DNA of 64,000 nt from Mixophyes australis (taxonomy: Eukaryota; Chordata; Amphibia; Anura; Limnodynastidae): assembly GCA_036250195.1 (NCBI GenBank), contig JAVHZZ010000011.1:50785311-50849310 (forward strand). The letters are read 5' to 3'. A model generated the notes under the pieces. The model was given only the letters and a program-made list of their open reading frames with translations. It did no database searches and was not told where the DNA came from. This document shows, piece by piece, positions 10,407 to 60,249 of the stretch. How positions within the stretch are numbered: the stretch's first letter is position 1; each line of letters begins with the position of its first letter. The position numbers and the translations under genes were made by a program.

Positions 10407-11970
10407 ATGGCTCTTAGGATCTTCTCCTTAAATGTTAAAGGTTTGAACAGCCCACAAAAATGTACAACACTTTATCTTACACTTAAACAACATAGGGCTG
10501 ATAGAGTCTTTCTTAAGGAGACACACTTTACTTGTCACTCACATCTGGAATTGAAGTCTAGACTGTACCCTTTTAGTTTCCATGCTTGTGATCCCCAGAC
10601 TGAAAAAATGGTGTGTTGCTACACTCTTTACCTCGCATGTGACATTTGAGCTGTTGACATGCCATTCTGACCCTGACGGTTGTTTTCTAATTCTGGTGGG
10701 AAAGCTCAACAATACCCTATTTACTCTAGCACCAAATCAAAACCAACATTTGTGTTTCGCTGCCCTAGACTCCTTGCTCTCTCGGGTCTGCCAGGTAGAA
10801 AAGTCAATGCTGTCTTGAATGGAGATCCCTTCCCTAAATCAATGTTGGAAGCGCGTATTGTAGTCATTCATAAGGAGGGGAAGGACCCCAGTGACTGTGC
10901 AAGCTATCATCCCATCTCCCTCATTAATGTTGATGTTAAGTTATATGCAAAGATCCTGGCTACCCATTTGAATAGAGTTCTTCTGGGTCTGATCCATTAC
11001 AATCAGACAGGGTTCATCCTGGGTCACTATACGAGGGATAATACCCGTTGCGCGATAGACCTAGTCCAAATAATCAACCAGAGACGTCTCCCAGCCATGT
11101 TGCTCTCCCTGGACACCGAGAAGGCATTCGACCGGATTTCATGGGACTTTATGTTTCATGTTCTGAAAGTGTATGGCTTCTCTGCTGAATTTCTGACGGG
11201 GGGTATATATTTATAATTTCCCTACAGTTAGGGAAAATTCAGGGTCTCCCTCTTTGCTGATGATTTACTGCTCTCCATGACGAATCCCCAGGAATCTTTG
11301 CCCACCCTCCACAGACTCATGGATGAGTATGGCCTTCTGTCAGGTTATAAAATTAACTTTACCAAATCAGAGGCCCTGATCCTTCATGCCCCTCCTTCCC
11401 TTAGGACCAGCCTACAGGCTAATTTTGTCTTGCACTGACAGGCAAATAAGATCAAATATCTTGGAATCTACATCACCTCTTCCTATGATAAATTATATTG
11501 GGAACATTTCCACCCTTTTGACTAAAATTAAGCAGGATCGAGCAATATGGAGGAGCTATATCATATCGTGGCTGGGAAGAATCATCGCTGAACCTGATCC
11601 GTAAACTTCTATACCTTTTCCAGACTCTTCCGGTGAAAGTACCTGACTGTGTTTTGAGATTTGCACTTCACTTTTCTCAAATTTATATGGTGTGTCAAGC
11701 CCCTAGAATCTCTGTAGCAGTGCTCAAGAGGCCCAGGGTCGGTGGAGGTAGAGGCATATGTGTCTACATTCCCCATTCACCAAAGGGATGATATCCAGGA
11801 TTTATAATTGGCTGATAAAGACCACCCTCGACACACCAGGATGGCAAGAACGGGAATGGGAGAATGACTGGGGACCCCTCCCAGATGACTCTTGTTGGGA
11901 GGAGGTCAGGAAGGGAATTGCCAAGAGTTTGATCTCTGCATTAATCAAGGAAACGGTCTACAAATTATAC
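10407..11970 (+). pseudogene. LINE ORF2 remnant (endonuclease start and reverse transcriptase)
   Basis: The ATG at 10407 gives the canonical ORF2 beginning. Most of the endonuclease is deleted between about 10640 and 10780. The RT part is readable from about 10740 to 11610 with another deletion near 11210-11240. The catalytic box reads FADD at about 11252. The C-terminal part is interrupted at 11970 by the hAT-like insertion and resumes at about 13082-13480. Confidence 0.8.
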
Positions 11971-12134
11971 CAGTGGTTCCCAAACTTTTGCAGTTCGCGG
12001 CACCCTTAGAGTCTCCAAATTTTTTCAAGGCAACCCTCCAAAATAATTATTGAGCAGTCCTGTTTTAGAAGTAGTTGGGTCAACAAAATGTAAAAAGTAT
12101 TTAGGTCAGGACAGAAATACTTATTTAGTTGTAT

Positions 12135-12800
12135 GCAAAAATGCCCCCTCTGCATCCAGACACTATGCCCCTTCTGCATCCAGACACACTGCCCCCTCTG
12201 CATCCAGACACACTGCCCCCTCTGTCACGCTGTCCCCCCTCCTCTGCTCTCTGTCACGCTGTCCCCCTCCTCTGCCCCTCTCACGCTGTGTCCCCCTCCA
12301 CTGCCCCTTTCACGCTGTGTCCCCCTCCACTGCCCCTCTCACGCTGTGTCCCCCTCCACTGCCCCTCTCACGCTGTGTCCCCCTCCTCTGCCCCTGTCAT
12401 GCTGTGTCAACCTCCACTGCCCCTCGCACGATGTCCCCCCCTCCTCTGCCCCTCTATCACACTCCTTTGTCCCTCTGTGTGCCCCGCTGTCACACTCCTC
12501 TGCCCCTCTGTCTGCCCCTCTGTCACACTCCTCTGCCCCTCTGTCTGCCCCTCTGTCACACTCCTCTGCCCCTCTGTCTGCCCCTCTGTCACACTCCTCT
12601 GCCCCTCTGTCACACTCCTCTGCCTCTCTGTCTGCCCCGCTGTCACACTCCTTTGCCCCTATCTCTGCCCCGCTGTCCACTCCTCTGCCCCTCTGTCTGC
12701 CCCACTGTCTGCCCCGCTGTCTGCCCGCTGTCTGCCCCACTGTCTGCCCGCTGTCTGCCCCACTGTCTGCCCCACTGTCTGCCCCACTGTCTGCCAGCTG
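12135..12800 (+). repeat. C/T-rich minisatellite inside hAT-like element A
   Basis: It starts with three to four copies of a 24-bp unit (CTGCATCCAGACACACTGCC plus four bases), passes through CCCCTCTCACGCTGTGTCCC-type units and ends in CTCTGTCTGCCCC and CACTGTCTGCCC units. The motif therefore changes along the array. It is not coding. Confidence 0.85.
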
Positions 12801-12848
12801 TCACACTGCCACTCACTCCTCTGCCGCGAGCCAGCCATAGGAAAAAAG

Positions 12849-12967
12849 AAATCCGTCGGGCGCCGGGACCCAGCAGCCTCCTCTCTCCCGCAGCTGTCAC
12901 TGAATATCGACGTCAGTAACAAGCTGCGGGAGAGAGGAGGCTGCTGGGTCCCGGCGCCCGACGGATT
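12849..12967. repeat. Long stem-loop within hAT-like element A
   Basis: Arms of about 46 bases (12849-12894 and 12922-12967) are nearly perfect reverse complements with a 27-base loop containing GACGTC. The stem is GC-rich. The corresponding hairpin in element C is at 58292-58450. Confidence 0.85.
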
Positions 12968-13855
12968 GGTAAGTTTATGTGCTGTTTCTTTTTTCCTATG
13001 GCTGGCTCGTGGCACCCCAGTGACAGCGCCGCGGCACCCCTGGGAGCCGCGGCGCACACATTGGGAACTGCCGAATTATACTATAGGAGGTACTAAACCC
13101 TGCATAAGCTGTCTAGAATGTTTCACATGGCCACTCCGAGTTGCTGGCAGGAATGTGGTTAGAGGGGTACGATGCTACATATATGGTATACCTGCCTTCT
13201 TATAGTTTACCTTCTGGAACATGGTCCTTGCGTTTATAAACTCTGAGTCAGAACAACAGGTGAGTAAGGACCTCTAGTTGTTCCTTCTCTCTCGCCATAT
13301 ACCTGATGAGAGTGCCCATTCTAACAAGCTTATCTCTTATATACTAGCAGCTGCTAAATCTCTAATAGCAAAGCATTGGCAAGGCCACTCACAAACATGG
13401 AGAGTATTACGTACTTACTCCATGATAAATAAAATAAATTCGACAATATGTGGGCGCCATGGTACTTACTAGAAAGCGTAGTTGCCTATCCACTTTGGCT
13501 CTCCCCCCGCTATTGGAACATAGTTCTTTGGCCGCAACTGGATCCCAATCTTGTTGATGTCTGATTTTTAACTACATGGTTTAATTGTTTCTGGCTATGC
13601 CCCATGTACTTTCCTTTGCAATGTTTCTGGTGGTATTTGTGCCTTTCTTATTTACTTCCCACCCACCTTCTTCTCCTCTCCTTCTTTCCCCCCCCTCTAT
13701 CCTCCCCCTTCCCTTTCCTTTCCCCTATTGATAAAACATATAAAACTAAAAGGAGACATCTTGTATATTAACATTATTTTGTTTAATATGATCTTTGTAT
13801 ACTTTCTGCTGTTTCCTCTTTAAATAAAGTTTTTTTAAAAAAATGTTGACAAACT

Positions 13856-14467
13856 TTACAATACTATTGTTTCTTAATATTTATTTTACAACAGTGAATA
13901 ATATTTTTGTTTAACAACATTAGATGCTTTAATTTGCACAACTCAGTTTGCAATTGTTTATATTTTAATATTTTACAATTATTAAGTGTTTTATATGCAT
14001 GCCTTTGGGTAAAATATTGCATGCAATTAAACTAAAGTTTAATTAAAAGTCAAAATTGCAGTTGTATGTAGAACTCTAGCGGCTTATAGTATACTTAATC
14101 AGCAGGTTGAACTGCCATAAAAAAATTGTCTGCAACGTCAAGTCGGGCAGGTTGCAGCCAGTGGGAAAATAATTTAAAAGAAATAGTTTTTTTTCCTGTA
14201 AAAGAGGGCAGGGCAGGAATGTTCTCAAAGCTTCCTGGGTGTGGATCAGATTGTGTAACCTTAGCTGTCTCATCTCACCTGCATATCTTCTTCATCGACA
14301 AGAATCAGGTTTCATCTTTAGAATAGGTGTGAGTCACGGGTAGTTAGTTATTTATCAGAGTACTTTCATTGTTCACTCTCTCTGATCCTAAAGCATCTCA
14401 ACAGATTTGCCAGCATATAGAATCTATAGCATTAAGAAGTATTTTATAAAATCCAGTAAGGAAGACC
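13856..14467 (+). promoter_or_regulatory. TRIM29: Presumed promoter and 5' UTR of TRIM29
   Basis: The region between the LINE and the first coding exon must hold at least part of the 5' UTR, and the promoter if there is no upstream non-coding exon. An exact AP-1 consensus TGAGTCA is at 14330-14336 and an E-box CACCTG near 14277. I see no convincing TATA box at a plausible distance, and the start of transcription cannot be read from the sequence. The start codon has a strong context (ACCATGG). Confidence 0.35.
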
Positions 14468-15070
14468 ATGGAAGATCAGGATATAAAAACAGCCAATGGC
14501 TCCTTTTCCGAAGATGGTAATGACAGTTTGCACCAGGATTTTGCAAACTCAAGTATCGATGAGAATCAAGAGGTACTAAGTAGTCCTGCTTCAGACAATG
14601 GCGGTGTGAAGACAACAGTACTTAAAACCAGTCCTGGAACAGGGGGTGTCAAAATTAGCAGGGTGAGCCTTTATACTGCATCTGATGTAAAGGCAGCTGG
14701 AAGTCCTAGTATTGAAAATTCAGAAGCTCGGAGATCTATTCGTGTAAGCACAGGATCTAACATAGATTCTGATGAAGTCCTCTGCGATTCATGCATTGAT
14801 GATAAGAAGAAAGCTGTTAAGTCCTGCCTGGTCTGCCAGACTTCATTTTGTGAGCCTCACCTGAAGCCCCATCTGGAGGGGGCTGCCTTTCGAGACCACA
14901 AGCTGCTGGATCCTATCAGAGACTTTGAAGCCAGAAAATGCCAACTGCACAGCAAAACAATGGAGCTGTTTTGTCAAACAGACCAAACATGCATCTGCTA
15001 TCTGTGCATGTTCCAGGAACATAAGAATCACAATACAGTGACAGTTGAGGCTGAAAAATATGTGAAAGAG
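14468..15070 (+). CDS. TRIM29: TRIM29 coding exon 1 (linker and two B-boxes)
   Basis: TRIM29 is a TRIM-family protein without a RING domain. In mammals it is cytoplasmic, is expressed in epithelia, and has been linked to keratin binding, p53/DNA-damage control and restraint of innate immune signalling. This exon encodes residues 1-201. Residues 1-104 are a Ser/Thr-rich disordered region. B-box 1 starts at C106 (CDSCIDDKKKAVKSCLVC) with HLKPHL at 131-136, and B-box 2 starts at C158 with CQTDQTCICYLC and EHKNH at 184-188, keeping the zinc ligands. The B-box part strongly resembles vertebrate TRIM29, while the N-terminus is divergent. The ATG is in a strong Kozak context. The exon ends in GAG followed by GTAAGT in phase 0. 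The fourfold match of exon layout makes a paralogue unlikely. Confidence 0.93.
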
Positions 15071-15454
15071 GTAAGTGTCGCTATCAGCAAATAATATTAA
15101 TTTATTGTAGGTTAAGAAGAACTAAAGAAGTATTGTCATTGTCAAATATAATACTCATGGAAAAAAACCTATATTAACATAATTTATCAAAGTGCCTGTA
15201 AGAGTTATGTATAGTCATAGTTAAATCATTACATTAAGAACGTTAATCTCTCCTTAGATAATGCCTATGAACTCTACTTGTATTGTTCAAGTAAACCAAG
15301 TAAAGCAAAATGCTAAAACAACTCTCAATGCAAATGCTGCTTTTGTTATATAAACTAGAGCCACCAGGGAAGGGCAATTACAAACAGATCGATCTATTTT
15401 ACAAGTTAGATAACACAATATTGTAAGATCTTTTTCAGAATGTATCTGCTTTTA

Positions 15455-28489: not shown

Positions 28490-28653
28490 ATGTTGAAATT
28501 TGACCAGCCCAAAAAGCTTTTCTAGTCATTTCTCAATGCCTGAGCTATAGCATATTTAATTGTTTTCTAGCACTTGTGATACATGGGCTTGTATGTAACA
28601 TTTTTGAAAGTATGAGGAAATATTTTATTTTAGGTGTCTCACTTCCTACACAT
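28490..28653. repeat. Left half of tandem-duplicated unit interrupted by the ERV
   Basis: This segment and the sequence after the ERV (38452-38739, then about 39550-39715) together match 39716-39760 plus 42240-42750. Shared landmarks are TGACCAGNCCAAAAAG, TATGTAACATTT and GTGTCTCACTNCCTNNACATGAA. The second copy lacks the ERV. Confidence 0.7.
28650..28653. repeat. ERV target-site duplication ACAT, left copy
   Basis: ACAT precedes the 5' LTR and is repeated at 38452-38455 after the 3' LTR. A 4-bp duplication is usual for gamma-type integrases. The paralogous empty site has a single ACAT. Confidence 0.85.
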
Positions 28654-28725
28654 TGTCGAAGTCAGTAAATTGGATAAAGTCATTTCAATTAAAGTCTAGC
28701 AAACTTGGTTGTCTTTGTCTGAAAA

Positions 28726-28783
28726 GATGCGTACGGTACGCATCGACGTACAAGGGCACGCTACGGCGTGAAAGGGCGTACGC
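28726..28783. promoter_or_regulatory. Palindrome cluster in LTR U3
   Basis: Three dyads follow each other: GATGCGTACGGTACGCATC (28726-28744, 9-bp arms around one G), CACGC-TACG-GCGTG (28757-28770) and GCGTACGC (28776-28783). They are CpG-rich in an AT-rich LTR and are repeated in the 3' LTR. Dyads in U3 are often dimeric factor sites; that role is inferred here. Confidence 0.45.
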
Positions 28784-29243
28784 ATCCACTACACGTGGCA
28801 GCAACAGTAATTGGTCTTTTACCATACATTCACACAAACACACATTCTTATAAAATAGTACACATTATTGGTAGTTGCAACACATAGTCAGTTATGTCGA
28901 AATATAGTAGTATTTATATGTTATATCAGAGTTACATGCATATTAGTGAAATACACAGAACGGGTTAAAGGAATAACATCATGAGTGGTATCATAATGAA
29001 CCTTGTTACATATCCTACTGTTTGGTTCACTCTGCGAGTTATGAATGATAGGGAATTATGAACTACTTAAGACTAAGGAATTCTGGCGGGAAGAGCAGAG
29101 CATACCCCCTGCAGAGATGACCCCCTCCTTTGGATTCCTTAGGATGAACCAGCCAATGATTGACGACCCCTTGGACATTCCTGAGACCCGGACCAATAGA
29201 TGCAAGCCATACCATCTTCATTGTATTACTGTATTTCATTGTG

Positions 29244-29250
29244 TATATAA
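29244..29250 (+). promoter_or_regulatory. TATA box of 5' LTR
   Basis: TATATAA about 150 bp before the AATAAA signal, the spacing expected for a retroviral U3/R arrangement. The matching site in the 3' LTR is 38226-38232. Confidence 0.7.
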
Positions 29251-29469
29251 GCAGCAGCTTGTGATCCAGAGTGCAGACTTCTTGTCCCCAGACTTCAGGA
29301 TTGAATGACTGCACTGGATCCAGAGCGCCTGCGATAAGTAACGGCTGTATTTACTATTACTTCGCTTGAGCATATTTTTTTCCACTTATTGCGAATAAAT
29401 CTTTGTGCGTTGGAAACACAAATCGAGGTTCGACAATCGTTATTGGTTAGCGACAATACGCACATAACA

Positions 29470-30463
29470 ATTGGGGGCTCGTGAGCTTTGGAGGTTTCGT
29501 TGCCGATGATACGCAAGACCAACGGATTTCGGTTCCTCAACAAAGGGTGGAGACGCGTCATAAACGGGTAAGAACGCATGGTGTTCAAAACCTGAATTTT
29601 ACTCTGTGTTGCGAAACCGAATGTCCGTTTTGCATTATCTAGGGCACGCTAACTAGAACCTAGGGACAAAAGAGAAAACTGTTTCTTTTTTCTGTCATTG
29701 TGCGTTTTAACTGTATTGCATTATTTAGCGTATGTGTACTTCCTGCTGTGCGTACGCGAACTTCCGGTAAACTTGCCACGTGGTTAAACAATCGTTTTGA
29801 TAGTTATTATACATGCATAGTATAATTACTTGTGAAAGCCTCTGAGACATTATTACTATTGTTGGGAACTTTTGATTTTCTGCGCAGAAAAGGTGTATAG
29901 TGTGTGATGTTGTAACGTAGATACACTGTTTTATTGTTGAGGTGCTCAGTTGCTGTCTGACGAGGCGGATTGCCCAACTGAAGGACGGTATACAGGGCAG
30001 GTATACCGAATGCGAAAACTGGGTTTTCGCAAAGCGCTACCAATAGATCGCAAGGTTTGCTAATAATTAGTATTGGTAGGCAGTGCGATCCGGTCGCACC
30101 GTTAGTGCGAATTGGTGAAGCAGCTAGGAGGAATTATACTGGAAAGGCAGGTTGATTGTATCGACTTTGCGCTCCCAGCGATAATAAACTCAGCAGATTT
30201 TGTGGTTTAGCCAGGGTATCGAGGAGCTGATAGCCCTTGGGGCCCACAGTGATATTTCTGTATTAGGGAAAAGCGAGTGAGCGCGGCTAAAGGAAATACG
30301 TTCACCGAGGATTATAGATCTCTAGCGGTGAGTATAGCAACAGAGTTGAAATTATTAGGTGGAAAGAACAGAGCATTGCGGTGTGTCTGTATTTCACATT
30401 TGGCCGGAAGGAACAGAGCATTGCGGTGTGTCTGTGTTCCGGGTAGAAGGTATATTGTTCAAC
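29470..30463 (+). other. ERV leader (presumed packaging region)
   Basis: About 1 kb between the LTR and the gag ATG without a long open frame. It should contain the splice donor for env and the packaging signal, neither of which I can pinpoint. An in-frame 45-bp tandem duplication (unit with AACAGAGCATTGCGGTGTGT at 30367 and 30412) lies just before gag. The gag frame is open back to 30359 but has no ATG there and is preceded directly by TAG. Confidence 0.7.
29472..29482 (+). promoter_or_regulatory. Primer binding site, tRNA-Pro-like
   Basis: TGGGGGCTCGT begins two bases after the LTR end. These 11 bases match the start of the tRNA-Pro primer site used by many gammaretroviruses, but the following bases diverge from the full 18-base match. 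The actual primer is therefore probable rather than certain. Confidence 0.7.
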
Positions 30464-32083
30464 ATGGGTGCTAAGCATACGCTAGAGATGGTCAGTGTAC
30501 TGCCTAAGGAAGGCCCTATTGGTTCAGCGAGGTTTCTCATGTGTAAGAAGTATGGTGCATATGCAACTGTGTATTGTGACACGTGGGTCGGGATGACCAA
30601 AGCTTGTGATAGGCCTTTCCCAACAATAGGGAGTTTTAATGCAGAGGTACTGAATACTGTAAAAGATAAAATATGGTTGATCAAGTCAACGAAAAAGAGA
30701 AATAGACATAATGATTGTTTAAAATTGTGGCAAATGGAAGGTAACACGTGGCAGAGCAGCGAATGCAAACCGGAAATAGGCGTGGCGAAAAGCGCGCGCA
30801 AGACGGATGTAACCATTGAGAAGCGTGGCGAACTCAGCGCAAGCGCGCCCCCGCCACCTTATGTGGCGGGAGGGGTAAGTACAGCCGTTGTTAAAACTGA
30901 AAATAGAAAAATTACTAAGTTGTACCCTGTTTTAAATCAATTTCAATCAAGTGTATCTGAAAACGAAGATGAACCCACTGTGATTTCGGCCATTGCCCAT
31001 GCTGTTAATGTACTAGAGGCTCAGCGCAAGTATGAGAAAATGGCTGAGATAGGTGAGAGTAGCGTGATCACTAGGAGTGAAAGTGTTCTAAATCTAGGGC
31101 CTGTAAATCCTGTAGCGTCCCCTGAAGTTAGTGTACCAGAGGGTGTGTTCCCGGTCCGCACAATATCAGTTCCCAATGGGAAACCGGATAAGGATGGTGT
31201 AGTTCCTTTAAGAAATGTTACAATGCATTGTCCATGGACTAGATCAGAATTACGTTCCATTATGACTGAATTCCCAGATCCTAGAAAAGAGTTAGCTAAA
31301 TGTCAGAAATTTGTTAAAGACTTAGGGAATGCTCATGAACCAACCAGTAAGGATTGGCGGGTAGTGTTGAGGGCGTGTCTTCCTCCCAATACTAACATAC
31401 AAAAATTTATTGGAGATTGTTTGTTGGAGGAAGATGACACCCTGACTGATGAGATTAACCAACGGAATATAGAACAAATTGTCAAACACTTAGCCATCTG
31501 TTTTCCAGTAGTAGTAAATTGGAGTAAGATTTTCACCATTAAACAAAAGGATAGTGAAACTGCCTCAGATTACTTTGCTAGAGCTATAACAGCGATTGCA
31601 CGATTTACTGGGATATCCAACATAAGTGAGGACCCACATCACAGAGAGGTAGCTGTAGGGGTACTGATGGATGGCCTTAGGGAAAATTTAAAGACGAGAG
31701 TACAAACCACATTACCTAATTGGAGAGGCGTCACGGTAGACTTCCTTAGGGAGTCTGCTGTGGAGCATGACAAGAACCTTTTTAGAAAAAGGGAAGAGAA
31801 AAGTGATAGGTTAATGACGGTAAGTATACAGGCTCTAGAAGGGGTGCATACACGACCACCAGCATACAACCCATATAACAGGAAACCTAAAGTGATCAGG
31901 TGTTTCAACTGTAACGAGGAAGGACATTACAGGAGAGATTGTAATAAAGAAAGACTCAATACACATAGGGGTGGGTCACATAGATATCCTCCAAGAAAGG
32001 ATTCACATAGACTAGAAGACTCACATCTACCCGCGCATATTACGGCAGCAAATGCTGCGCGGGAAATCACTAGTCAGCGCTAG
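30464..32083 (+). CDS. gag: ERV gag polyprotein (539 aa)
   Basis: Gag builds the virus particle at the plasma membrane. The ATG at 30464 was chosen because it gives MGAKHTLEM, with a Gly2 suited to N-myristoylation, whereas the 35 upstream open codons lack an ATG. The matrix region covers roughly residues 1-125. A PPPPY stretch at 129-133 contains the PPxY late-budding motif. The capsid region runs from about 250 to 465, with a segment resembling the major homology region near 359-382. Nucleocapsid has one CCHC zinc knuckle, C480-X2-C483-X4-H488-X4-C493, and a basic tail. It ends at UAG (32081-32083), and the same frame continues as pol, so a Gag-Pol fusion would arise by readthrough. I see no internal stop or frameshift. 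Length and single knuckle suit gamma/epsilon-type Gag. Confidence 0.93.
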   Translation: MGAKHTLEMVSVLPKEGPIGSARFLMCKKYGAYATVYCDTWVGMTKACDRPFPTIGSFNAEVLNTVKDKIWLIKSTKKRNRHNDCLKLWQMEGNTWQSSECKPEIGVAKSARKTDVTIEKRGELSASAPPPPYVAGGVSTAVVKTENRKITKLYPVLNQFQSSVSENEDEPTVISAIAHAVNVLEAQRKYEKMAEIGESSVITRSESVLNLGPVNPVASPEVSVPEGVFPVRTISVPNGKPDKDGVVPLRNVTMHCPWTRSELRSIMTEFPDPRKELAKCQKFVKDLGNAHEPTSKDWRVVLRACLPPNTNIQKFIGDCLLEEDDTLTDEINQRNIEQIVKHLAICFPVVVNWSKIFTIKQKDSETASDYFARAITAIARFTGISNISEDPHHREVAVGVLMDGLRENLKTRVQTTLPNWRGVTVDFLRESAVEHDKNLFRKREEKSDRLMTVSIQALEGVHTRPPAYNPYNRKPKVIRCFNCNEEGHYRRDCNKERLNTHRGGSHRYPPRKDSHRLEDSHLPAHITAANAAREITSQR

Positions 32084-32100
32084 GGGTCAGGTCATACCTG
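32081..32100 (+). promoter_or_regulatory. gag-pol stop-codon readthrough site
   Basis: The UAG is followed by GGGTCAGGTC, with no frame change between gag and pol. A purine-rich start after UAG and a downstream pseudoknot are the known determinants of readthrough in gammaretroviruses. I see the context but cannot prove a pseudoknot without folding. Confidence 0.7.
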
Positions 32101-35100
32101 TAGTCTACAGCCAGTGAGGTTAACTGAGAGTCAGAGTGAAGAACCAACAATGATAGTTGACATAGCTGGCAGGAAACAAACTTTTCTTGTAGATACAGGG
32201 GCGGCCCGATCTGTGATAACCTCTCCTTTCAATCTACAGGTGACCAGCAAAACTATTCCAGCTATGGGGGTGACGGGAAAAGTGTTACATTATCCTCTAA
32301 CTAAACCCGCCGAAGTTACTATCGGGCCTCTGCATACTAAGCATTCGTTTCTCTTGGCTGCAGCGGCTCCTACTAACTTGCTAGGGAGAGACTTGTTATG
32401 TAAAATGGGATGTGTCATATACTGTACTTCAGATGGTGTGTTCCTAGATATACCCGAGAAGGTTGCACATGAGGTACAGGACATATTGGACACCCCTCCA
32501 AGGTTAATGTTACACTCTCCTGTTATAGAACAAAGTCCATCTCAAGTAAAGGGGATGTTGCTGGAAATACCAGGTTCCCTATGGACCAGAGATGGACAGG
32601 ACACTGGACTGATGGCAAACGTAGCCCCTGTCATGGTCAATCTAAAAAGTGGTAGGATAGCTCCAAAAATCCCACAGTATCCATTAAAACCGGAGGTGGA
32701 ACTAGGGGTATATCCTGTTATTGAGAGGCTGTTACAACAAGGGATTTTAATTCGTACAGCAAGTACAGCAAATAGTCCCATTTTCCCTGTGAAGAAGAGT
32801 GGGGGGAGGGGCTATAGATTAGTCCAGGACTTAAGGGGAATTAACAAAGTTGTTGAGAGCCAATTCCCCGTAGTGCCGAATCCAGCTGTCATCCTCATGC
32901 AGATTCCACCGTCTGCCAGTCATTTTACTGTCATTGATCTATGTTCTGCTTTCTTTTCAGTCCCTCTTCACCCTGACTGCCAATACCTTTTTGCATTCTC
33001 CTACAGGGGAGTGCAATACACATGGACCAGACTACCCCAGGGGTTCATTGACAGCCCCAGTATTTTCTCCCAAGCCTTACATGACTGTTTGCAATCCTTT
33101 CAACCCCACAATGGGTCTGTTCTAATTCAATATGTGGACGATTTGTTGTTGTGCTCTGATTCTTTTATGTCATGTTTACATGATACTAAATTGTTGTTGC
33201 TTCATCTTTCACAAACAGGGCACAAGGTGGCAAAGGTTAAATTACAGCCATGTCAGACTAAGGTCAAATACTTAGGACACTGCCTCACTAAGGGGCTAAG
33301 ACACCTGACAACCGACAGAATTGAGGCCATACAACACATGACCCTGCCGCAGAGCCAGAAGCAGATTCGTACTTTCTTGGGGATGTGTGGATACTGTAGG
33401 TCCTGGATCCCAGGTTTTTCTATTCTGGCATTACCATTGCAGGAGCTAGTCTCTTCCTCAAAACCAGAACGTGTCGTACACACAGAAGAGTCGGAGCAAG
33501 CGTTCTTTAATCTTAAAGATAGTCTGACAAAAGCACCTGCATTGGGAATACCTGATTATGAAAAGCCTTTTGAGCTATTTTGTACAGAAGCTGATGGCTG
33601 TGCAGCAGGTGTCCTCACACAGAAACATGGTGACGCTAGCAGACCGGTAGCATACTACAGTGCACAATTAGACAATGTGGCAAGGTCACTCCCAACATGT
33701 CTCAGAAGTGTAGCAGCAACGGCCCTTCTAGTAAGTAAGAGCGAGGATGTAGTATTAGGACATAATTCAACCATCTATACACCCCATGCTGTATCAGCTC
33801 TGTTAAATTCAGCCCAAACCAGACATGTTTCTTCAGCTAGATTCACAAAGTGGGAACTAGCCCTGATGGCACCCTCAAACATCACCATCAAACGATGTAG
33901 CACCCTAAATCCAGCTACATACCTTCCGTATGTGTCTCAAGAGACACAAAGGGTGGGAGGTGAGGAGACCCTGGTTGATGATGAGTTAGGCAAGAATACT
34001 GACACGCATGACTGTATGGAACACCTGAATCAGACCTTTACTGCAAGGCCCGACATACGTGACACCCCCTTAGAAAATGTAGATTTTACGTTTTATACAG
34101 ACGGAAGTTGCCATAGACAGACAGAGACAGGAGAGCTATGTACTGGTTACGCTGTTGTAGACGATCAGGATGTGGTAGAAGCTGAACCCCTTGGTCCACC
34201 TCACTCAGCCCAGGTGGCGGAACTAGTAGCACTAAGGAGAGCGTGTGAATTGGCAGAGGGTAAATCAGCCAACATATATACTGACTCTAGGTACGCCTTC
34301 GGGGTAGTGCATGATTTTGGGGCCCTTTGGCGTCTTAGAAACTTTACGACAGCAGCAGGTACACCAGTGGCACACTCACAACACATAAAAGGACTTCTGA
34401 CAGCGATACAGTTACCCAGAACAGTAGCCGTCATAAAGTGCAAAGCCCATACCTTTGAAGAAGACCCAGTGTCATTGGGCAACAACAGGGCAGACGAAGC
34501 TGCTAAATGGGCAGCAGGGCAACCTATGACTGTATCGACCGAGACTATGATGGTTTTTCAGACATTAGACACGCAGAAATTAATTGAAATGCAAGATTTG
34601 TGTTCCCTGCAGGAGAAGGCGGTCTGGAAGGCGAAGGGATGTGGTCAAGAGTCCTCAGGACTCTGGAGGGATGGACAAGGTAAGCCTGTAGCTCCCCGAA
34701 CATACTATCCAAGCCTGGCTGAAGCAGCACACGGCCTGACTCACCTGGGTAAAGAAGGTATGTGCAAACTGGTGAGAGCATACTGGTGTGCTCCCGGATT
34801 TTCCTCTCAAGCTGGTAAGAAAGCAATGTCATGTCTTACTTGTTTGAGGAAAAATGTTGGGAAAACTATTCCAACTGAGCCATCCCACATCCCTCCTACA
34901 GACGGACCTTTTCAGGTAATACAAATTGACTATATCCAACTACCACCGTGCAGGAATCTAAAGTATGTGTTAGTGTGTATTGATGTGTTTTCCGGTTGGG
35001 TAGAAGCATATCCGGCAGCCACTAATACTGCTGTGTTCACTGCAAAGAAAATTGTACAAGACTTTGTGTGTAGGTTCGGTATCCCTAGAATCATTGAAAG

Positions 35101-35758
35101 TGATAGGGGTACCCATTTTACTGGTGATGTCTTCCAAAATATGTGTAAACTCATGGGAATCAGTAGCAGACTTCACACCCCTTACCGACCACAAGCCAGT
35201 GGTAAGGTGGAGAGAGCAAATGGTACTATAAAGAACAAACTAGGTAAGATAATGGCTGAAACTGGGTTGGCATGGCCTGAGGCTTTGCCGTTGGTCCTCC
35301 ACAGCATTCGAACCACTCCTAGACCTCCTCTTAATCTGTCCCCCTTTGAGATACTGTTCGGACGACAACCTCATTTGATCGTGAGTCCACAAGACGACTT
35401 AAAGTGTAATAATGAAGTGACTGTACAATATCTTATAAGAATGAGTAGACAGCTGAAACAACAACAACAAAAACTAAAAATGCTGTCACCTGGTATGCCA
35501 GAGACGAACTGTCATGATGTTGAACCTGGAGACTATGTTATGATCCGCAATTTCTTACGTTCAGGTTGTTTAACAGACCGTTGGGAAGGCCCGTACCAAG
35601 TGCTGCTGACCAGTACTACATCACTGAAGGTTGCAGAGAGAGACACTTGGGTCCATTCCACCCACTGCAGGAGAGTCCATAATCCGGAGAAAGTGCAAGA
35701 CAAGACTCAGACCGACGACATAGAGCTGTCACTTGTGAGCCTGTTCCGGGAGACCTAA
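32084..35758 (+). CDS. pol: ERV pol polyprotein: protease, RT, RNase H, integrase (1224 aa)
   Basis: Pol matures Gag, copies the RNA genome and integrates the DNA. Numbering starts after the UAG. Protease has the active site DTGAARS at 37-43. Reverse transcriptase shows LPQGFIDSP and the catalytic YVDD at 350-353. RNase H starts near 660 with YTDGS (catalytic D673). Integrase has the HHCC zinc motif H883, H887, C917, C920, and the D,D35E triad D949, D1007, E1043. The C-terminal domain has GPYQV at about 1169, the GPY motif of gamma/epsilon-type integrases. All catalytic residues are present and no stop interrupts the frame. The first GTG in the frame is at 32114, but translation is expected as Gag-Pol readthrough, so the region is given from 32084. 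The UAA lies 57 bases before the env ATG. Confidence 0.94.
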   Translation, partial: GSGHTCSLQPVRLTESQSEEPTMIVDIAGRKQTFLVDTGAARSVITSPFNLQVTSKTIPAMGVTGKVLHYPLTKPAEVTIGPLHTKHSFLLAAAAPTNLLGRDLLCKMGCVIYCTSDGVFLDIPEKVAHEVQDILDTPPRLMLHSPVIEQSPSQVKGMLLEIPGSLWTRDGQDTGLMANVAPVMVNLKSGRIAPKIPQYPLKPEVELGVYPVIERLLQQGILIRTASTANSPIFPVKKSGGRGYRLVQDLRGINKVVESQFPVVPNPAVILMQIPPSASHFTVIDLCSAFFSVPLHPDCQYLFAFSYRGVQYTWTRLPQGFIDSPSIFSQALHDCLQSFQPHNGSVLIQYVDDLLLCSDSFMSCLHDTKLLLLHLSQTGHKVAKVKLQPCQTKVKYLGHCLTKGLRHLTTDRIEAIQHMTLPQSQKQIRTFLGMCGYCRSWIPGFSILALPLQELVSSSKPERVVHTEESEQAFFNLKDSLTKAPALGIPDYEKPFELFCTEADGCAAGVLTQKHGDASRPVAYYSAQLDNVARSLPTCLRSVAATALLVSKSEDVVLGHNSTIYTPHAVSALLNSAQTRHVSSARFTKWELALMAPSNITIKRCSTLNPATYLPYVSQETQRVGGEETLVDDELGKNTDTHDCMEHLNQTFTARPDIRDTPLENVDFTFYTDGSCHRQTETGELCTGYAVVDDQDVVEAEPLGPPHSAQVAELVALRRACELAEGKSANIYTDSRYAFGVVHDFGALWRLRNFTTAAGTPVAHSQHIKGLLTAIQLPRTVAVIKCKAHTFEEDPVSLGNNRADEAAKWAAGQPMTVSTETMMVFQTLDTQKLIEMQDLCSLQEKAVWKAKGCGQESSGLWRDGQGKPVAPRTYYPSLAEAAHGLTHLGKEGMCKLVRAYWCAPGFSSQAGKKAMSCLTCLRKNVGKTIPTEPSHIPPTDGPFQVIQIDYIQLPPCRNLKYVLVCIDVFSGWVEAYPAATNTAVFTAKKIVQDFVCRFGIPRIIESDRGTHFTGDVFQNMCKLMGISSRLHTPYRPQASGKVERANGTIKNKLGKIMAETGLAWPEALPLVLHSIRTTPRPPLNLSPFEILFGRQPHLIVSPQDDLKCNNEVTVQYLIRMSRQLKQQQQKLKMLSPGMPETNCHDVEPGDYVMIRNFLRSGCLTDRWEGPYQVLLTSTTSLKVAERDTWVHSTHCRRVHNPEKVQDKTQTDDIELSLVSLFRET

Positions 35759-35815
35759 AGCCTGCAGTTGAGACACCTGAACCAGAGACGTTACCTCAGA
35801 ACTATCTTTCCAGCG

Positions 35816-37606
35816 ATGGAGTGGCGGTTTTTGTTTTTCTTTTGTTCCAGGATTTTCCTTGTTTTTACTTTTTCTAGGACATTCTATTTTTGTGAAGGAG
35901 GATGGAGGAGAGAGGAGAGTTCTGGGAGTGATACGGATGAAATAGAGGCCGAAGAAAAGTTAATAGGATATCCTGAGCAGCCCATTATCAAACTTGGTCC
36001 AGGGGTTATGAAAAGGTCTGCTAGCTCAGGAACTCATAGGCAGTGTGAGGGGCTATTGTCTGATGAGTATTGTATCTGCAAGTTCTGCAACTCCCTAGTT
36101 GACGAGAGATGCATCCAACGATGCCAGTCCCCCAGTACTCTGAATATAGGCGGGCATCCTTTGGAGGATTATCACTCCCTGGTGGGTAAGGTGCTAAACC
36201 AAACTGAGTGTTGGGTGTGCTCTCACGTGCCTCAAGGGCAGCATAACATAGGACTAGTGCCATTCCCGCTAAACATATCCGAAGTACTCGAATTAAGGGG
36301 TGGGAGGCCCATAGAAGGGAGGTACAATAACACTAGGTCCCCTAGTCTGACGCTTCGACAATACTCCCTAGGCAGATCGTTGCTGTGCCTAAACATATCT
36401 CATGCAAAGCGCCTGGAGAATTGGGAGGCTGACCTATCAGATCAGACAATGGCTCGCCACACTCATTTTAGAGAGAGACTCACAAGGTCACTACTAGGCA
36501 GGAATGCTGATGGAAGTCACAAGTTAGGGCGTATAACCAAACATAAGAAGGTATCTATTGGAAAAGTCTCTACAGATAAATGTGAAAATATCATTAATGC
36601 CGACACGTGTCTAGAACAAATGGAGACACTAGGCATGGGTAGTTTTATCAAAACTCTGTGTGATATAATTCATGGGCATACTGTTCCTTATGTTCTCCCT
36701 GATGATGTGTATTTTGTTTGTGGGAGGAAAGCTTATTCCTGGGTGACTCCGAGTTCCAAGGGCTTGTGTTTCTTAGCTAAACTGGTTCCTGAAATCATGA
36801 CTATTACTCATGAAGAAATGGTAGATATTCACAAGACTACATCACCACCATACATACACACACAGTATGAACACCGTGGCAAGAGAAATATGATTCCTGG
36901 TGAGGAACCCATAGCTACAAAATTGATTAGTGAAACTGCTGGTTTCCAAGTTATGGTTGCTCTAGATCTCACCAGGACCGCTCGGGGAACATTAAACTTT
37001 AAATATATCCAAGACCTAGCTAAATTAATAGATAATATCACCGAGATGTATGATGACACTTTCAGGTATACAGGAAGGGAGCTACAAGCGTACAAAAAGG
37101 AGTTGGTGCAACATAGACTGGTACTAAATTATCTCACCTCTATTACTGGTGGGTACTGTGTGACACTGGCCACCCAGTTCGGTGTCAAATGTTGCACGTA
37201 CATTACTAATAATACGGAAGACCCTAAAGAGGTTATAGACCGGAAGATGGATGAAATTTTGCAGCTGAAATGGGAATTTCGAAAGAGCCATAATTCTTCG
37301 TTATATGAGGTCGGGGAAAAGGTGGCGGGTTGGTTCTCATGGTTGAACCCAGCAAAATGGTTCTCCGGTCTGGGGGAGTGGGTACAGGAAATGATTGCGA
37401 GTGTAGGTAAGCTCCTTCTCCTTATACTGGGTGTCATCTTAGCAATTGGTTTAGTTGTCAAATGTGTTCCTACTGTGTTGAAGTGTGGAAAACGGTCTCA
37501 TGGGAGTAACACTGAGAAAGAGACTGAAAGGGTGGTACCAGATACCGAGATCATGGTCTGTGAAGAAGTATTGTATAATCCTGAACTTGAAACGGTGATT
37601 GGGTGA
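35816..37606 (+). CDS. env: ERV envelope glycoprotein (596 aa)
   Basis: Env would mediate receptor binding and membrane fusion from a spliced RNA. The ATG at 35816 places a hydrophobic signal peptide at residues 5-25. The surface subunit contains a CWVC motif at 132-135 (the CXXC of gamma-type Env) and several N-X-S/T sites. A dibasic RGKR motif at 354-357 fits furin cleavage. The transmembrane subunit (358-596) has C448 and C459-C460, a CX10CC arrangement, longer than the CX6CC typical of gamma-type Env. A Trp-rich membrane-proximal stretch (GWFSWLNPAKWFSGLGEW) precedes a transmembrane helix at about 533-555 and a cytoplasmic tail of about 40 residues. The frame is intact. A classic strongly hydrophobic fusion peptide right after RGKR is not obvious, so the cleavage site is inferred. 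Confidence 0.9.
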   Translation: MEWRFLFFFCSRIFLVFTFSRTFYFCEGGWRREESSGSDTDEIEAEEKLIGYPEQPIIKLGPGVMKRSASSGTHRQCEGLLSDEYCICKFCNSLVDERCIQRCQSPSTLNIGGHPLEDYHSLVGKVLNQTECWVCSHVPQGQHNIGLVPFPLNISEVLELRGGRPIEGRYNNTRSPSLTLRQYSLGRSLLCLNISHAKRLENWEADLSDQTMARHTHFRERLTRSLLGRNADGSHKLGRITKHKKVSIGKVSTDKCENIINADTCLEQMETLGMGSFIKTLCDIIHGHTVPYVLPDDVYFVCGRKAYSWVTPSSKGLCFLAKLVPEIMTITHEEMVDIHKTTSPPYIHTQYEHRGKRNMIPGEEPIATKLISETAGFQVMVALDLTRTARGTLNFKYIQDLAKLIDNITEMYDDTFRYTGRELQAYKKELVQHRLVLNYLTSITGGYCVTLATQFGVKCCTYITNNTEDPKEVIDRKMDEILQLKWEFRKSHNSSLYEVGEKVAGWFSWLNPAKWFSGLGEWVQEMIASVGKLLLLILGVILAIGLVVKCVPTVLKCGKRSHGSNTEKETERVVPDTEIMVCEEVLYNPELETVIG

Positions 37607-37623
37607 TAGTTTATTACACTATC

Positions 37624-37634
37624 AAAGGGTGGAA
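37624..37634 (+). promoter_or_regulatory. Polypurine tract of ERV
   Basis: AAAGGGTGGAA ends two bases before the 3' LTR and is interrupted by a single T. It is the expected start point for plus-strand DNA synthesis. Confidence 0.75.
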
Positions 37635-37635
37635 C

Positions 37636-38451
37636 TGTCGAAGTCAGTAAATTGGATAAAGTCATTTCAATTAAAGTCTAGCAAACTTGGTTGTCTTTGT
37701 CTGAAAAGATGCGTACGGTACGCATCGACGTACAAGGGCACGCTACGGCGTGAAAGGGCGTACGCATCCACTACACGTGGCAGCAACAGTAATTGGTCTT
37801 TTACCATACATTCACACAAACACACATTCTTATAAAATAGTACACATTATTGGTAGTTGCAACACATAGTCAGTTATGTCGAAATATAGTAGTATTTATA
37901 TGTTATATCAGAGTTACATGCATATTAGTGAAATACACAGAACGGGTTAAAGGAATAACATCATGAGTGGTATCATAATGAACCTTGTTACATATCCTAC
38001 TGTTTGGTTCACTCTGCGAGTTATGAATGATAGGGAATTATGAACTACTTAAGACTAAGGAATTCTGGCGGGAAGAGCAGAGCATACCCCCTGCAGAGAT
38101 GACCCCCTCCTTTGGATTCCTTAGGATGAACCAGCCAATGATTGACGACCCCTTGGACATTCCTGAGACCCGGACCAATAGATGCAAGCCATACCATCTT
38201 CATTGCATTACTGTATTTCATTGTGTATATAAGCAGCAGCTTGTGATCCAGAGTGCAGACTTCTTGTCCCCAGACTTCAGGATTGAATGACTGCACTGGA
38301 TCCAGAGCGCCTGCGATAAGTAACGGCTGTATTTACTATTACTTCGCTTGAGCATATTTTTTTCCACTTATTGCGAATAAATCTTTGTGCGTTGGAAACA
38401 CAAATCGAGGTTCGACAATCGTTATTGGTTAGCAACAATACGCACATAACA
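37636..38451 (+). repeat. ERV 3' LTR (816 bp)
   Basis: Same length and ends as the 5' LTR. The poly(A) signal AATAAA is at 38376-38381 and the TATA box at 38226-38232. Two substitutions distinguish it from the 5' copy (C near 38207, A near 38434). Because it is in the sense direction of TRIM29, its poly(A) signal could also act on the host transcript. Confidence 0.93.
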
Positions 38452-38739
38452 ACATGAATAAGAGCAAAACTATTTTTTGAAAATACAGCTGCAGGCGCAC
38501 AATGGTCTTGGGTAAATGCCAATTAGTATTTTTTAGTATTAAACATAAAGAAATGTCTTTACATGTTTTATGTGTCTAATGAAAGCAAGGTGAATTGCTT
38601 TGTCATCCTAACTTGCTTCATATATGATATGTATAAGCTAATTAAGAAATGAAATTGTTACATATCTCACATATATATGCCTTCCTTTAAATGGCAAGAA
38701 TGTTTTTGGATGCACACATTATAAGCATTACAAATGAAT
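38452..38739. repeat. Right half of tandem-duplicated unit after the ERV
   Basis: It starts with the second ACAT of the target duplication and matches about 42345-42610 (landmarks GGTAAATGNCAATTAGTATTTT and AGCTAATTAANAAAT). It continues at about 39550 after a MITE insertion. Confidence 0.7.
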
Positions 38740-48245: not shown

Positions 48246-48429
48246 TAACATTTAAATAATGAACATAGACATCCTTTGTGGGATCTGCTTTCGCTTCATC
48301 TCCTACAGTTGTGTCTCCTAGACTTTTGTTGGCCAAATATTATGTTTTATTTTTCCTGCTGTTTATGTGCTTTAAATACATTTGCAGATTAGATGTGCAA
48401 TCTGTGACCGCCTGTTATACAGTCGCAAT

Positions 48430-49800
48430 CGTTGCTAACCTTACTTCATTTCGGTCTTCAAGACACAGTTCTATCCTGGTTCACATCCTACCTTTCTAAT
48501 CGCTCTTTCACTATTAATTTCTCTGGGTCCACCTCTGCTCCGCTTCCTTTATCAGTTGGAGTACCGCAAGGCTCAGTGCTAGGTCCTCTGTTGTTCTCTA
48601 TCTATACCGCTTCTCTTGGAAATCTAATAAGTTCCTTTGGATTTCAGTATCATCTCTATGCAGATGATTCCCAAATTTATCTATCCTCTCTTGATCTCTC
48701 ACCATCTGTGTTGTCCCGTGTAACTGACTGTCTTTCTGCCATTTCATCTTGGATGTCCTCTCGCCAGCTCAAACTTAATCTTTCTAAAACAGAGTTAATA
48801 ATATTCCCACCCACCAACAAGAGCATACCTGACATTTCTATCTATGTTGATAACATGACCATAAATCCCACCCCCCAAGATCGCTGCCTAGGTGTTATCC
48901 TTGACTCACACCTATCCTTTGTTCCCCACATTGACTCTATATCTAAATCATGTTACATACATCTAAAATACATTTCCAGAACTCGCACATATCTCACGCA
49001 AGAAACTGCAAAAACCGTATTTCATGCACTTATCATCTCCCGCATTGACTATTGCAATTCCCTCCTTACTGGTCTTCCCCAAAACAGACTCAAACCCCTA
49101 CAATCCTATTTGCATGCTGCGGCAAGATTGATTTTCCTTGCAAATCGTTATTCCTCCGTTGAATCACTCTGTATGTCTCTACACTGGTTGCCTGTTTTCT
49201 ACCGAATCCAATATAAAATACTTTTACTAACCTACAAGGCCATCAACAAAGCTGCACCAACATACATCACCTCTCTTGCCTTAAAATATCTCCCAACTCG
49301 GCAACTCCGATCTGCGTCTCTCATCCACCCTCATTGCATCCTCCCATTCCCGGTTACAGGACTTTTTTCGGGCTGCACCCACTCTATGGAATTTTCTCCC
49401 TCGCACAATAAGACTCTCCTCTGGTCTACAAACTTTCAAGCGTTCTCTGAAAACCCACCTCTTCAGACAAGCTTATAATATTCCTCAACCACCCTCTTAA
49501 CCTTACTACATTACCCTATTACCACCCGTTACACAATTTCACACAAGACAACTACCCCCTGACCAACATTGTTGTGTGACAGGATCATTTAGCTTATGAG
49601 TCACTTTTACCTTTGCAGTCTGGCTGGGCCAAAATGCAAAATGTAGACTTAACCTCATGTGTCAAACTCCCATTGTCCCATAGATTGTAAGCTTGCAAGC
49701 AGGGCCTTCTCACCTCTTTGTCTGTTTTACCCAGTTTGTTTATTAAGGCGCTACGGAATATGTTGGCACTATATAAATAAATGATGATGATGATGATGAT
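48430..49800 (+). pseudogene. L2/CR1-type LINE fragment with 348-codon open frame, copy 2
   Basis: A 5'-truncated LINE that retains one open frame from 48432 to 49478. Visible blocks are [38 protein letters not shown], the catalytic YADD within [50 protein letters not shown] and [13 protein letters not shown]. The C-terminal part has [20 protein letters not shown]. The downstream motif for KTHLFRQAY is in another frame at about 49450-49477, so a late frameshift exists. The 3' end has GGCACTATATAAATAAATG and (GAT)n at 49780-49800. There is no endonuclease, so it cannot act alone, but its relatively intact frame suggests a younger insertion than copy 1. Confidence 0.85.
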
Positions 49801-52438: not shown

Positions 52439-52672
52439 AATTTCACAACAAACCAAAAGTCAGCTGTGGACCATAGCTTCAAGGATCTTATACGAGAACT
52501 TCAGAGACAGCAGGAAGAGGTGAAATCCCTTTTAGAACAAAAGGAGAGAGCTGCTGTAGATCTTATTGAGCAGATTATAGGTGATTTACAAGTGAAAAGA
52601 GATCAACTTCAAGATAAGCAACATGATGGAGACAAGCTGTTACATACCACAGATGCCGTACTTTTCTTACAG
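52439..52672 (+). CDS. TRIM29: TRIM29 coding exon 3 (coiled coil)
   Basis: The exon has 234 bases, 78 codons, phase 0 at both ends, after TTTCTAG and before GTGAGT. It encodes residues 234-311 from NFTTNQKSAVDHSFKDLIRE to DKLLHTTDAVLFLQ. The sequence is rich in E, K, Q and L with heptad spacing (ELQRQQEEVKSLLEQKERAA), the central TRIM coiled coil used for antiparallel dimerisation. Length and boundaries match the family exon that ends in VLFLQ. Confidence 0.92.
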
Positions 52673-57606: not shown

Positions 57607-58109
57607 CCAGACCCTATTTGTGCATATGTGGTCAACAAGTTCTTAGGGAATAATTATACCCAAAATGATTAGGACTCAAGACCTATGCAAACATAAGTAG
57701 GAAAGAACCATATAGATAGTCAGTATTCTTAGGCTCACAGACTCTTGATAAGGAAATGTTCCAATATGCCAATTTACCGCTAGCATGTAACTCACGGTTT
57801 TCGCTGAAGACACTTTCTATTATCAGCTAGGCTGTACACAGGTATTCCCAGAGTCCTCGATTCTTAGAGCTGTGACGATTAACATCTGAGCAGCAGTCAC
57901 GTGACGTGACCGCGGGTGCACACCCTATTAAAGTTGTATGAAAAAAATAGCAGGATACAAAGTTTCTAAAGAAGTTGGTTCCTTCCAATGAAGTGATATA
58001 CACTATCTGATTCTGGTCTCTCAGATCCACGGGTATGTGATAGATAGGACTCGCTGACGCAATTCGTCTGATAGATGCAGACTTTTTCAAAGCAGTGAGT
58101 CTCACTAAC
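57607..58109. other. Spacer of the long inverted repeat
   Basis: About 500 bp between the arms, without recognised coding sequence or repeats. It is locally CpG-richer around 57895-57925. Confidence 0.5.
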
Positions 58110-58291
58110 ATCTACTGTGGTATTGATTTACATTATTGTTACATTTGTATCTTATTTATGTATCAATTTGGTACCATCAAGATATACAATATTATTGCTG
58201 ATTCTATGGTATATACTGGCGGTTCCCAAAGTGTGCGCCGCGGCTCCCAGGGGTGCCGCGGCGCTGTCACTGGGGTGCCGTGGGCCAGCCC

Positions 58292-58450
58292 AAAAAAAAA
58301 GAAAGAAAACAGAAAGTTACCAATCCGCGCGGCGCCGGGACCCAGCAGCCTCCTCTCTCCCGCAGCAGCTGTCACTGACGTCATTCAGGACGGCTGCTGG
58401 GTCCCGGCGCCGCTCGGATTGGTAACTTTCTGTTTTCTTTCTTTTTTTTT
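58292..58450. repeat. Long stem-loop within hAT-like element C
   Basis: Arms of about 59 bases (58292-58350 and 58392-58450), including CAATCCG…CGGATTG and GAAAGAAAACAGAAAGTTAC with its complement. The loop contains TGACGTCA at about 58376-58383. Confidence 0.85.
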
Positions 58451-58459
58451 TGGGCTGGC

Positions 58460-59530: not shown

Positions 59531-60249
59531 GCAACGTGAGAGAGGGCAGTGTGTCTGGATGCAGAGGGGGCAGTGTGCCTGGTTGCAGAGGGAGTAGTGT
59601 TTCTGGTTGCAGAGGGGGCAGTGTGCCTGGATGCAGAGGGGGCAGTGTGCCTGGATGCAGAGGGGCATTTTTGCATACAACTAAATAAGTATTTCTGTCG
59701 TGACCTAAATACTTATTACAACTTTTTGACCCAACTACCTCTAAAACAGGACTGTTCAGTAATTATTTTGGAGGGGTGCCTTGAAAAAATTTGGAGACTC
59801 TAAGGGTGCCGCGAACTGCAAAAGTTTGGGAACCACTCGTATATACCAATAATTAGGAATCACTATTTTTTATTTTTTATTTGTTTATAATAAATATTAA
59901 TTCAAACACATATATAAATGGACTACATCTAGTTTATAGCAAATGTCTATTTATTGATACCTATGTATGTAGATTGGTTTCTATATTTATTTGGATAAGA
60001 TATATTCCAGTTTTAAGAATTGCACAGGACTATCTCTTTTATATATTAAGATGTATAATTCATATTTAATTAATAATAATTATTATTATTAATAGTTAAT
60101 AATAAAATATTTATATTTATATATAAAACTGTTTCAAGAAATCTGCAGATATGTGTTTGTCTTCTTATATCACTGGAAAAGAAGCAAAACTATTTTTCTT
60201 TGTTGCAGTGTTAAATCCCTCTCTCTGTCTATCTCTCTCTCCTCTCTAT

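What the first reader, a model, noticed from the sequence alone, without database searches (positions are those of the whole stretch)
28654..38451. Structurally complete ERV with intact gag, pol and env in a TRIM29 intron
Seen: two full LTRs, primer site, purine tract, 4-bp target duplication, uninterrupted gag (539 aa), pol (1224 aa) and env (596 aa), with catalytic residues of protease, RT, RNase H and integrase in place. Known: most vertebrate ERVs are broken. Inferred: a recent germline insertion of an amphibian retroviral lineage that may still be expressed.
Basis: partly seen in the sequence, partly recalled or inferred. Interest (0 to 1): 0.9.

Follow-up and report, generated by a model that had tools for sequence, protein, structure and literature searches.

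The report
Frog retrovirus with rebuilt envelope switch
A structurally complete retrovirus with nearly identical ends, likely from a frog genome, carries an envelope protein whose fusion-control segment is 30 residues long where the published alignment finds a constant 26, so it would be a new variant of a fusion switch shared by many viruses.

Summary
Window 28654-38451 is a full-length provirus: 816-bp LTRs differing at 2 sites, ACAT target duplication, primer site, purine tract, and uninterrupted gag (539 aa, ends TAG), pol (1224) and env (596), all in one frame. It lies in sense orientation between a B-box exon best matching TRIM29 and a TRIM coiled-coil exon. Pol groups with frog class I ERVs, away from MLV. 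An intact frog ERV is already published (XtERV-S). The new point is Env. Its close relatives found are five proteins: two Mixophyes fleayi, two Pseudophryne corroboree, one unnamed Logan contig. In all five sequences that carry the region (window included) the disulfide loop has ten, not six, residues and ISD position 3 is His, not Asn; position 8 is Asn in four of five; one copy has lost the third cysteine. Hogan et al. 2024 found Asn3, Arg4, Asp8 and three cysteines 100% conserved and the 26-residue length constant in 37 proteins. SU keeps CWVC. I read it as a gamma-type-like Env with a rebuilt disulfide switch in a young provirus. Copy number, expression and fusion are untested.

The parts
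28650..28653 (.). Left target-site duplication ACAT
28654..29469 (+). 5' LTR, 816 bp, TGTCGAAG...ACATAACA; AATAAA at 29394
29472..29482 (+). Primer-binding-site candidate TGGGGGCTCGT (tRNA-Pro-like over 11 nt; tRNA end recalled)
30464..32083 (+). gag, 539 aa, ends in TAG; CCHC knuckle at 31901; PPPY and PPAY motifs
32084..35758 (+). pol, 1224 aa (PR-RT-RNase H-IN), same frame as gag, so readthrough of the gag TAG is the inferred expression mode
35816..37606 (+). env, 596 aa, syncytin-like SU/TM
36209..36220 (+). SU CWVC (CXXC) motif, residues 132-135
36875..36886 (+). RGKR furin-type cleavage site, residues 354-357
37106..37156 (+). ISD-equivalent segment of 17 residues (431-447) with H at position 3 and N at position 8
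37157..37195 (+). Expanded TM cysteine loop CX10CC, residues 448-460
37169..37180 (+). Four extra residues relative to syncytin-1, placed at 452-455 by the alignment
   Evidence: alignment
37412..37468 (+). Membrane-spanning segment (hydropathy maximum 2.97)
37624..37635 (+). Imperfect polypurine tract
37636..38451 (+). 3' LTR; AATAAA at 38376
38452..38455 (.). Right target-site duplication ACAT
14450..15070 (+). Host TRIM29-like B-box exon (end set by GTAAGT donor; 14450 is only the start of the open frame)
52439..52672 (+). Host TRIM coiled-coil exon (PF25600), between AG and GTGAGT

Best explanation
This is a complete, uninterrupted class I endogenous retrovirus, likely a recent germline insertion in a frog, whose Env is homologous to gamma-type fusion proteins but has an altered ISD and a CX10CC loop, and is predicted to work by the same SU-TM disulfide exchange with changed geometry. 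Inferred steps: full-length RNA from the 5' LTR; Gag-Pol by readthrough of the gag TAG; Env from a spliced RNA; furin cleavage at RGKR; an intrasubunit bond between the first two TM cysteines and a labile bond from the third to the SU CWVC motif; receptor binding lets CWVC reduce that bond and frees TM to refold. In MLV the ISD is proposed to hold this bond until the right moment (Hogan et al. 2024). The frog clade replaces two ISD residues that were 100% conserved in that study and lengthens the loop by four, so I infer that the changes are linked: the longer loop likely repositions the cysteines or takes over part of the restraint that Asn3 gives in MLV.
For: Provirus anatomy and open frames. 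Pfam domains. Env matches syncytin-1 in the PDB, E 4.7e-8, aligned through the ISD and cysteine loop with a 4-residue gap there; CWVC, RGKR and three loop cysteines present. Window, P0002, P0003, P0004 have CX10CC; P0001 has the same spacing but Tyr for the last Cys. His3 in 5 of 5, Asn8 in 4 of 5 (P0004 has Asp), Arg4 in 5 of 5. The Podarcis protein P0029 shows Asn3/Asp8/CX6CC. Published rule: six fully conserved residues and constant length in 37 proteins; N3A destabilises the bond and abolishes infectivity (PMC11575397). Pol tree puts the window with frog ERVs.
Against: No function was measured. In MLV, N3A kept full cell-cell fusion and D8A had only a modest effect, so the changed residues need not alter fusion itself. 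ISD change is not without parallel: snake arenavirus GP2 keeps CX6CC while its ISD is not recognisable (PMC3758190 passage). Only four sequences have the full CX10CC; two are Pseudophryne gene models, one an unnamed contig. One Mixophyes copy has lost the third cysteine. Structure predictions failed (mean pLDDT 32.4 and 37.7), so loop geometry is unknown. The TM piece alone scores below the TLV_coat cut-off (E 0.28).
Confidence: 0.72

Rival explanations
1. An ordinary young ERV: the loop and ISD changes are tolerated drift within the gamma-type range and have no mechanistic meaning.
For: The rest of the anatomy is standard. D8A and G15N have only modest effects on MLV infectivity and N3A keeps cell-cell fusion. 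Only four sequences with full CX10CC support the pattern.
Against: The longer loop, His3 and the CC pair are shared by the window and P0004, which have only 35% Env identity; Asn3 and the loop cysteines are 100% conserved and the length constant in 37 published proteins, and N3A abolished MLV infectivity.
Confidence: 0.3
2. Env has lost the covalent SU-TM switch and its subunits associate without it (as beta-type Envs do); the cysteines merely stabilise TM.
For: Loop spacing departs from CX6CC; one Mixophyes copy lacks the third cysteine.
Against: The third cysteine is kept in 4 of 5 sequences with TM, and SU CWxC in 4 of 4 that cover that part (window, P0001, P0125, P0002).
Confidence: 0.12
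3. The env of this locus is kept by the host (a syncytin-like or receptor-blocking gene) and is not just a young viral gene.
For: NCBI models call the Pseudophryne relatives syncytin-like; env is intact.
Against: gag, pol and both LTRs are equally intact and the LTRs nearly identical, so youth explains env by itself; the names look like automatic homology labels.
Confidence: 0.05

Closest known systems
Gamma-type Env (MLV, syncytin-1/-2; PMC9967133, PMC11575397)
   Same: SU CXXC, furin site, TM with ISD-like segment followed by three cysteines, a membrane span; sequence match to syncytin-1 and -2
   Different: Loop X10 not X6; ISD+loop 30 residues not 26; His for Asn3, Asn for Asp8
XtERV-S of Xenopus tropicalis (PMC8278194)
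   Same: Intact young frog ERV with in-frame gag stop before pol and a gamma-like TM
   Different: Class III pol, 441-aa Env, QNR-type ISD and CX6CC as reported there; here class I pol and CX10CC
Xenopus ERVs Xen-1 and XTERV1 (called epsilonretroviruses in PMC8278194; their sequences not compared)
   Same: Amphibian class I elements; the window pol groups with frog pol proteins including one Xenopus laevis protein
   Different: Epsilonretrovirus Env is described as predicted to be structurally distinct (PMC3758190); direct comparison not made
Mixophyes fleayi LOC142151874 and Pseudophryne corroboree 'syncytin-like' models
   Same: Same Env family, same ten-residue spacing and His3
   Different: P0001 lacks the membrane span and the third cysteine; P0003 and P0004 lack the N-terminal part of SU including the CXXC

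Membership tests
Endogenous retrovirus (provirus) | Paired LTRs with target duplication, PBS, PPT, gag-pol-env | tested here: met
   PBS matches the recalled tRNA-Pro end over 11 nt only
Class I (gamma/epsilon-related) pol | Pol closest to class I elements | tested here: met
   best PDB matches are MLV-type RT (E to 1.5e-149) ahead of Pr125Pol, listed next (1.5e-54), and HIV (1e-29 and weaker); groups with frog pols in a tree that held MLV but no class II or III rows
Genus Epsilonretrovirus / clade Mu | Groups with WDSV in pol | not tested
   no WDSV sequence was fetched; PMC6001957 states that clade Jin (gamma) infects only amniotes
Gamma-type Env | CXXC in SU | tested here: met
   CWVC
Gamma-type Env | CX6CC in TM | tested here: not met
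   CX10CC
Gamma-type Env | ISD+loop of constant 26 residues | tested here: not met
   17 + 13 = 30 residues
Gamma-type Env | Asn3 and Asp8 of the ISD | tested here: not met
   His3 and Asn8
Gamma-type Env | Arg4 and three loop cysteines | tested here: met
Gamma-type Env | Metastable SU-TM disulfide | not testable with these tools
   needs protein chemistry
TRIM29 intron location | TRIM29 exons on both sides, same gene | tested here: inconclusive
   B-box best match TRIM29 and a TRIM coiled-coil exon downstream on the same strand; the second exon is identified at family level only, and no transcript was seen

The most novel reading that the evidence does not exclude
Australian ground frogs and their kin host a retrovirus lineage whose Env runs on an alternative disulfide switch: the ISD and the cysteine loop changed together, so that a gamma-type-like fusogen works without residues thought to be indispensable, and at least one copy is young and intact enough to make it today.
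Probability: 0.45. Interest if true: 0.75.

Novelty: new variant of a known kind. Interest (0 to 1): 0.55.

Why it matters
The ISD + CX6CC block is used to identify gamma-type Envs, and why it is so conserved is an open question (PMC9967133, PMC11575397; passages and sections read). A natural family that changes its length and two of its fully conserved residues is a ready-made test of whether the block exists to control the disulfide. Screens keyed to CX6CC would miss such Envs, and none of the five relatives carries a precomputed Pfam domain.

Tried and rejected
Structure: full env with five relatives (mean pLDDT 32.4) and the TM ectodomain alone (37.7) gave no usable model, so no fold search was run. 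Readthrough: the 80 nt from the gag TAG fold no better than shuffles (z 0.71; 152 of 200 shuffles at least as good; pseudoknots not modelled), so readthrough rests on the shared frame and the TAG. Weak fusion peptide: considered and dropped, because the control P0029 is less hydrophobic by the same measure (0.19 against 1.05). IMG/VR scan with the Env alignment: 32 pattern matches, none a relative. Other copies in the window: none by blastn for six pieces searched apart. Gag beyond the zinc knuckle: no Pfam family above its cut-off (weak Gag_p24, E 0.13); PDB matches fall on the knuckle region. Env similarity outside the five: blastp against the other fetched proteins gave P0029 (E 2.9e-8, TM and SU), P0038 and P0018 (E 2e-6 and 8e-6, SU only) and a weak P0068. 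The homolog searches take only proteins sharing short words and of similar length, so more relatives may exist.

Papers: CX4/5/7/8/9/10CC gave 39 papers, 25 listed; no listed title or abstract start concerns a retroviral Env. CX6CC + endogenous: 36 papers, 30 listed, seen as a listing; CX6CC + amphibian + envelope: 7, 6 listed. Pseudophryne + endogenous retrovirus: 0. Wider amphibian or frog ERV searches showed no paper on this family in the rows listed. That a CX10CC Env is unpublished rests on these searches of an open-access library only.
Full report
What is there. The window holds a full-length provirus at 28654-38451 (9798 bp). The two LTRs are 816 bp and differ at two positions (29224/38206 T/C; 29452/38434 G/A, the latter in a CG in the 5' copy), flanked by ACAT on both sides. 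gag, pol and env are uninterrupted and lie in one reading frame, separated by TAG and TAA. The other two frames of the same stretches hold 45 to 88 stops each. Pfam recognises zinc knuckle, protease, RT, RNase H, integrase core, integrase C terminus and TLV_coat above their cut-offs.

Age. Two differences in 816 sites is 0.25%. With a neutral rate of about 1e-9 per site and year (recalled, not looked up) this is around one million years, with a wide error because it rests on two events. Three open genes agree with that.

Where it sits. An open frame at 14450-15094 carries a B-box above the Pfam cut-off and a second B-box-like match just below it; its best PDB match is TRIM29 (2csv, E 2.4e-29). 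It ends at a GTAAGT donor at 15071. On the same strand a TRIM coiled-coil region (PF25600, E 4e-17) corresponds to an exon at 52439-52672 between AG and GTGAGT. The provirus lies between them in the sense orientation, with AATAAA at 29394 and 38376. Sense insertions with such signals could truncate the host transcript; that is an inference. The nine frame translations of the flanks from 15095 on showed no other Pfam match than one RT fragment and this coiled coil. Host: the window's organism is not stated. Env relatives come from Mixophyes fleayi (Limnodynastidae) and Pseudophryne corroboree (Myobatrachidae), both Myobatrachoidea, so a frog of that group is likely, not proven.

Pol. The search gave 299 proteins, of which 120 were listed; I put 47 of these, picked by hand for named hosts and rank, in a tree with the window. 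The window groups with two unnamed Logan proteins (P0005, 81% identity over 797 columns; P0006; SH-aLRT 100 each), and then with 13 rows, of which 12 are frogs and one unnamed (96), far from Rauscher MLV. One frog row (Leptobrachium) falls elsewhere, beside fish, and the salamander rows form another group, so frog ERVs are not one clade. It was a quick tree without bootstraps and without WDSV or class II/III rows. PMC6001957 (abstract and one section read) states that the gamma-related clade is limited to amniotes and that epsilon-related elements occur in nearly all jawed vertebrates except birds; the window would fit the latter, not directly tested.

Env, the point of interest. The 596-aa Env matches syncytin-1 (E 4.7e-8) and syncytin-2 (E 0.0016) in the PDB. 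It has CWVC in SU, RGKR at the SU/TM border, and one strong membrane span. In the syncytin-1 alignment the segment runs through the ISD and the cysteine loop with four extra residues. The loop is CX10CC. Two searches of 5.8 billion proteins, one with the sequence and one with a five-row alignment, gave four and five relatives. Of the six family sequences (window plus five) P0125 lacks TM; the other five all have the ten-residue spacing. Four keep the terminal CC; P0001 reads CY. ISD position 3 is His in 5 of 5, position 8 Asn in 4 of 5 (Asp in P0004), Arg4 is kept in 5 of 5. As a contrast, the Podarcis protein P0029, the only other fetched protein that matched an ISD-plus-loop pattern (of 125 scanned), has Asn3, Asp8 and CX6CC. 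It is more distant (24% over 165 residues).

Against what is known. Hogan et al. 2024 (PMC11575397: abstract, section 5 and the first of two parts of the discussion read) aligned 36 gamma-type Envs and Ebola GP: N3, R4, D8 and the three cysteines were the only fully conserved residues, and the ISD + CX6CC length was constant. N3A destabilised the SU-TM bond and abolished infectivity while cell-cell fusion was kept; D8A was mild. 'Pushing the endogenous envelope' (PMC3758190, passages) calls CX6CC rigidly conserved, but notes that snake arenavirus GP2 has CX6CC without a recognisable ISD. The 2023 review (PMC9967133, passages) calls the co-occurrence of ISD and CX6CC invariant. The frog family departs in length and in two of those six residues. 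By those definitions it fails membership as a gamma-type Env; by homology and parts it would work like one.

How it likely works. Shown: the parts listed above. Inferred: readthrough of the gag TAG (same frame; no supporting fold), spliced env RNA, furin cleavage, a labile bond between CWVC and the last TM cysteine, and disulfide exchange on receptor binding. The specific proposal is that loop expansion and the Asn3-to-His change are coupled. Against it: few sequences, no structure, no functional data, and one relative without the third cysteine, which may simply be decay.

What stays open. Copy number in the host could not be checked: the genome search did not complete in six tries. Expression and polymorphism are untested. 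An intact frog ERV is not new by itself (XtERV-S, PMC8278194; abstract, env section and passages read).

Noticed in passing
window 10677-11216 and 48408-49478, + strand: Two partial reverse transcriptase domains (RVT_1, E 1.4e-15 each), covering profile positions 1-97 and 92-193: pieces of other retroelements, type not determined.
   Followed up: no
window 30361-30438: A 33-nt direct repeat with start-to-start spacing of 45 nt (94% alike) just upstream of the gag ATG, inside the open frame that runs into gag.
   Followed up: no
window 29470-30463: A long (about 1 kb) leader between LTR and gag; no + strand open frame of 80 aa or more there apart from the upstream extension of gag.
   Followed up: no
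window 12001-13000 and 58001-60000: GC-rich stretches with strong GC skews of opposite sign and overlapping long open frames in several frames; the frames 12129-13202 and 58317-59762 have no Pfam match. Possibly repetitive sequence.
   Followed up: partly
P0001 (Mixophyes fleayi LOC142151874): Relative annotated as a host gene; the model lacks the membrane span and has Tyr in place of the third loop cysteine, so it is probably a decaying copy.
   Followed up: partly
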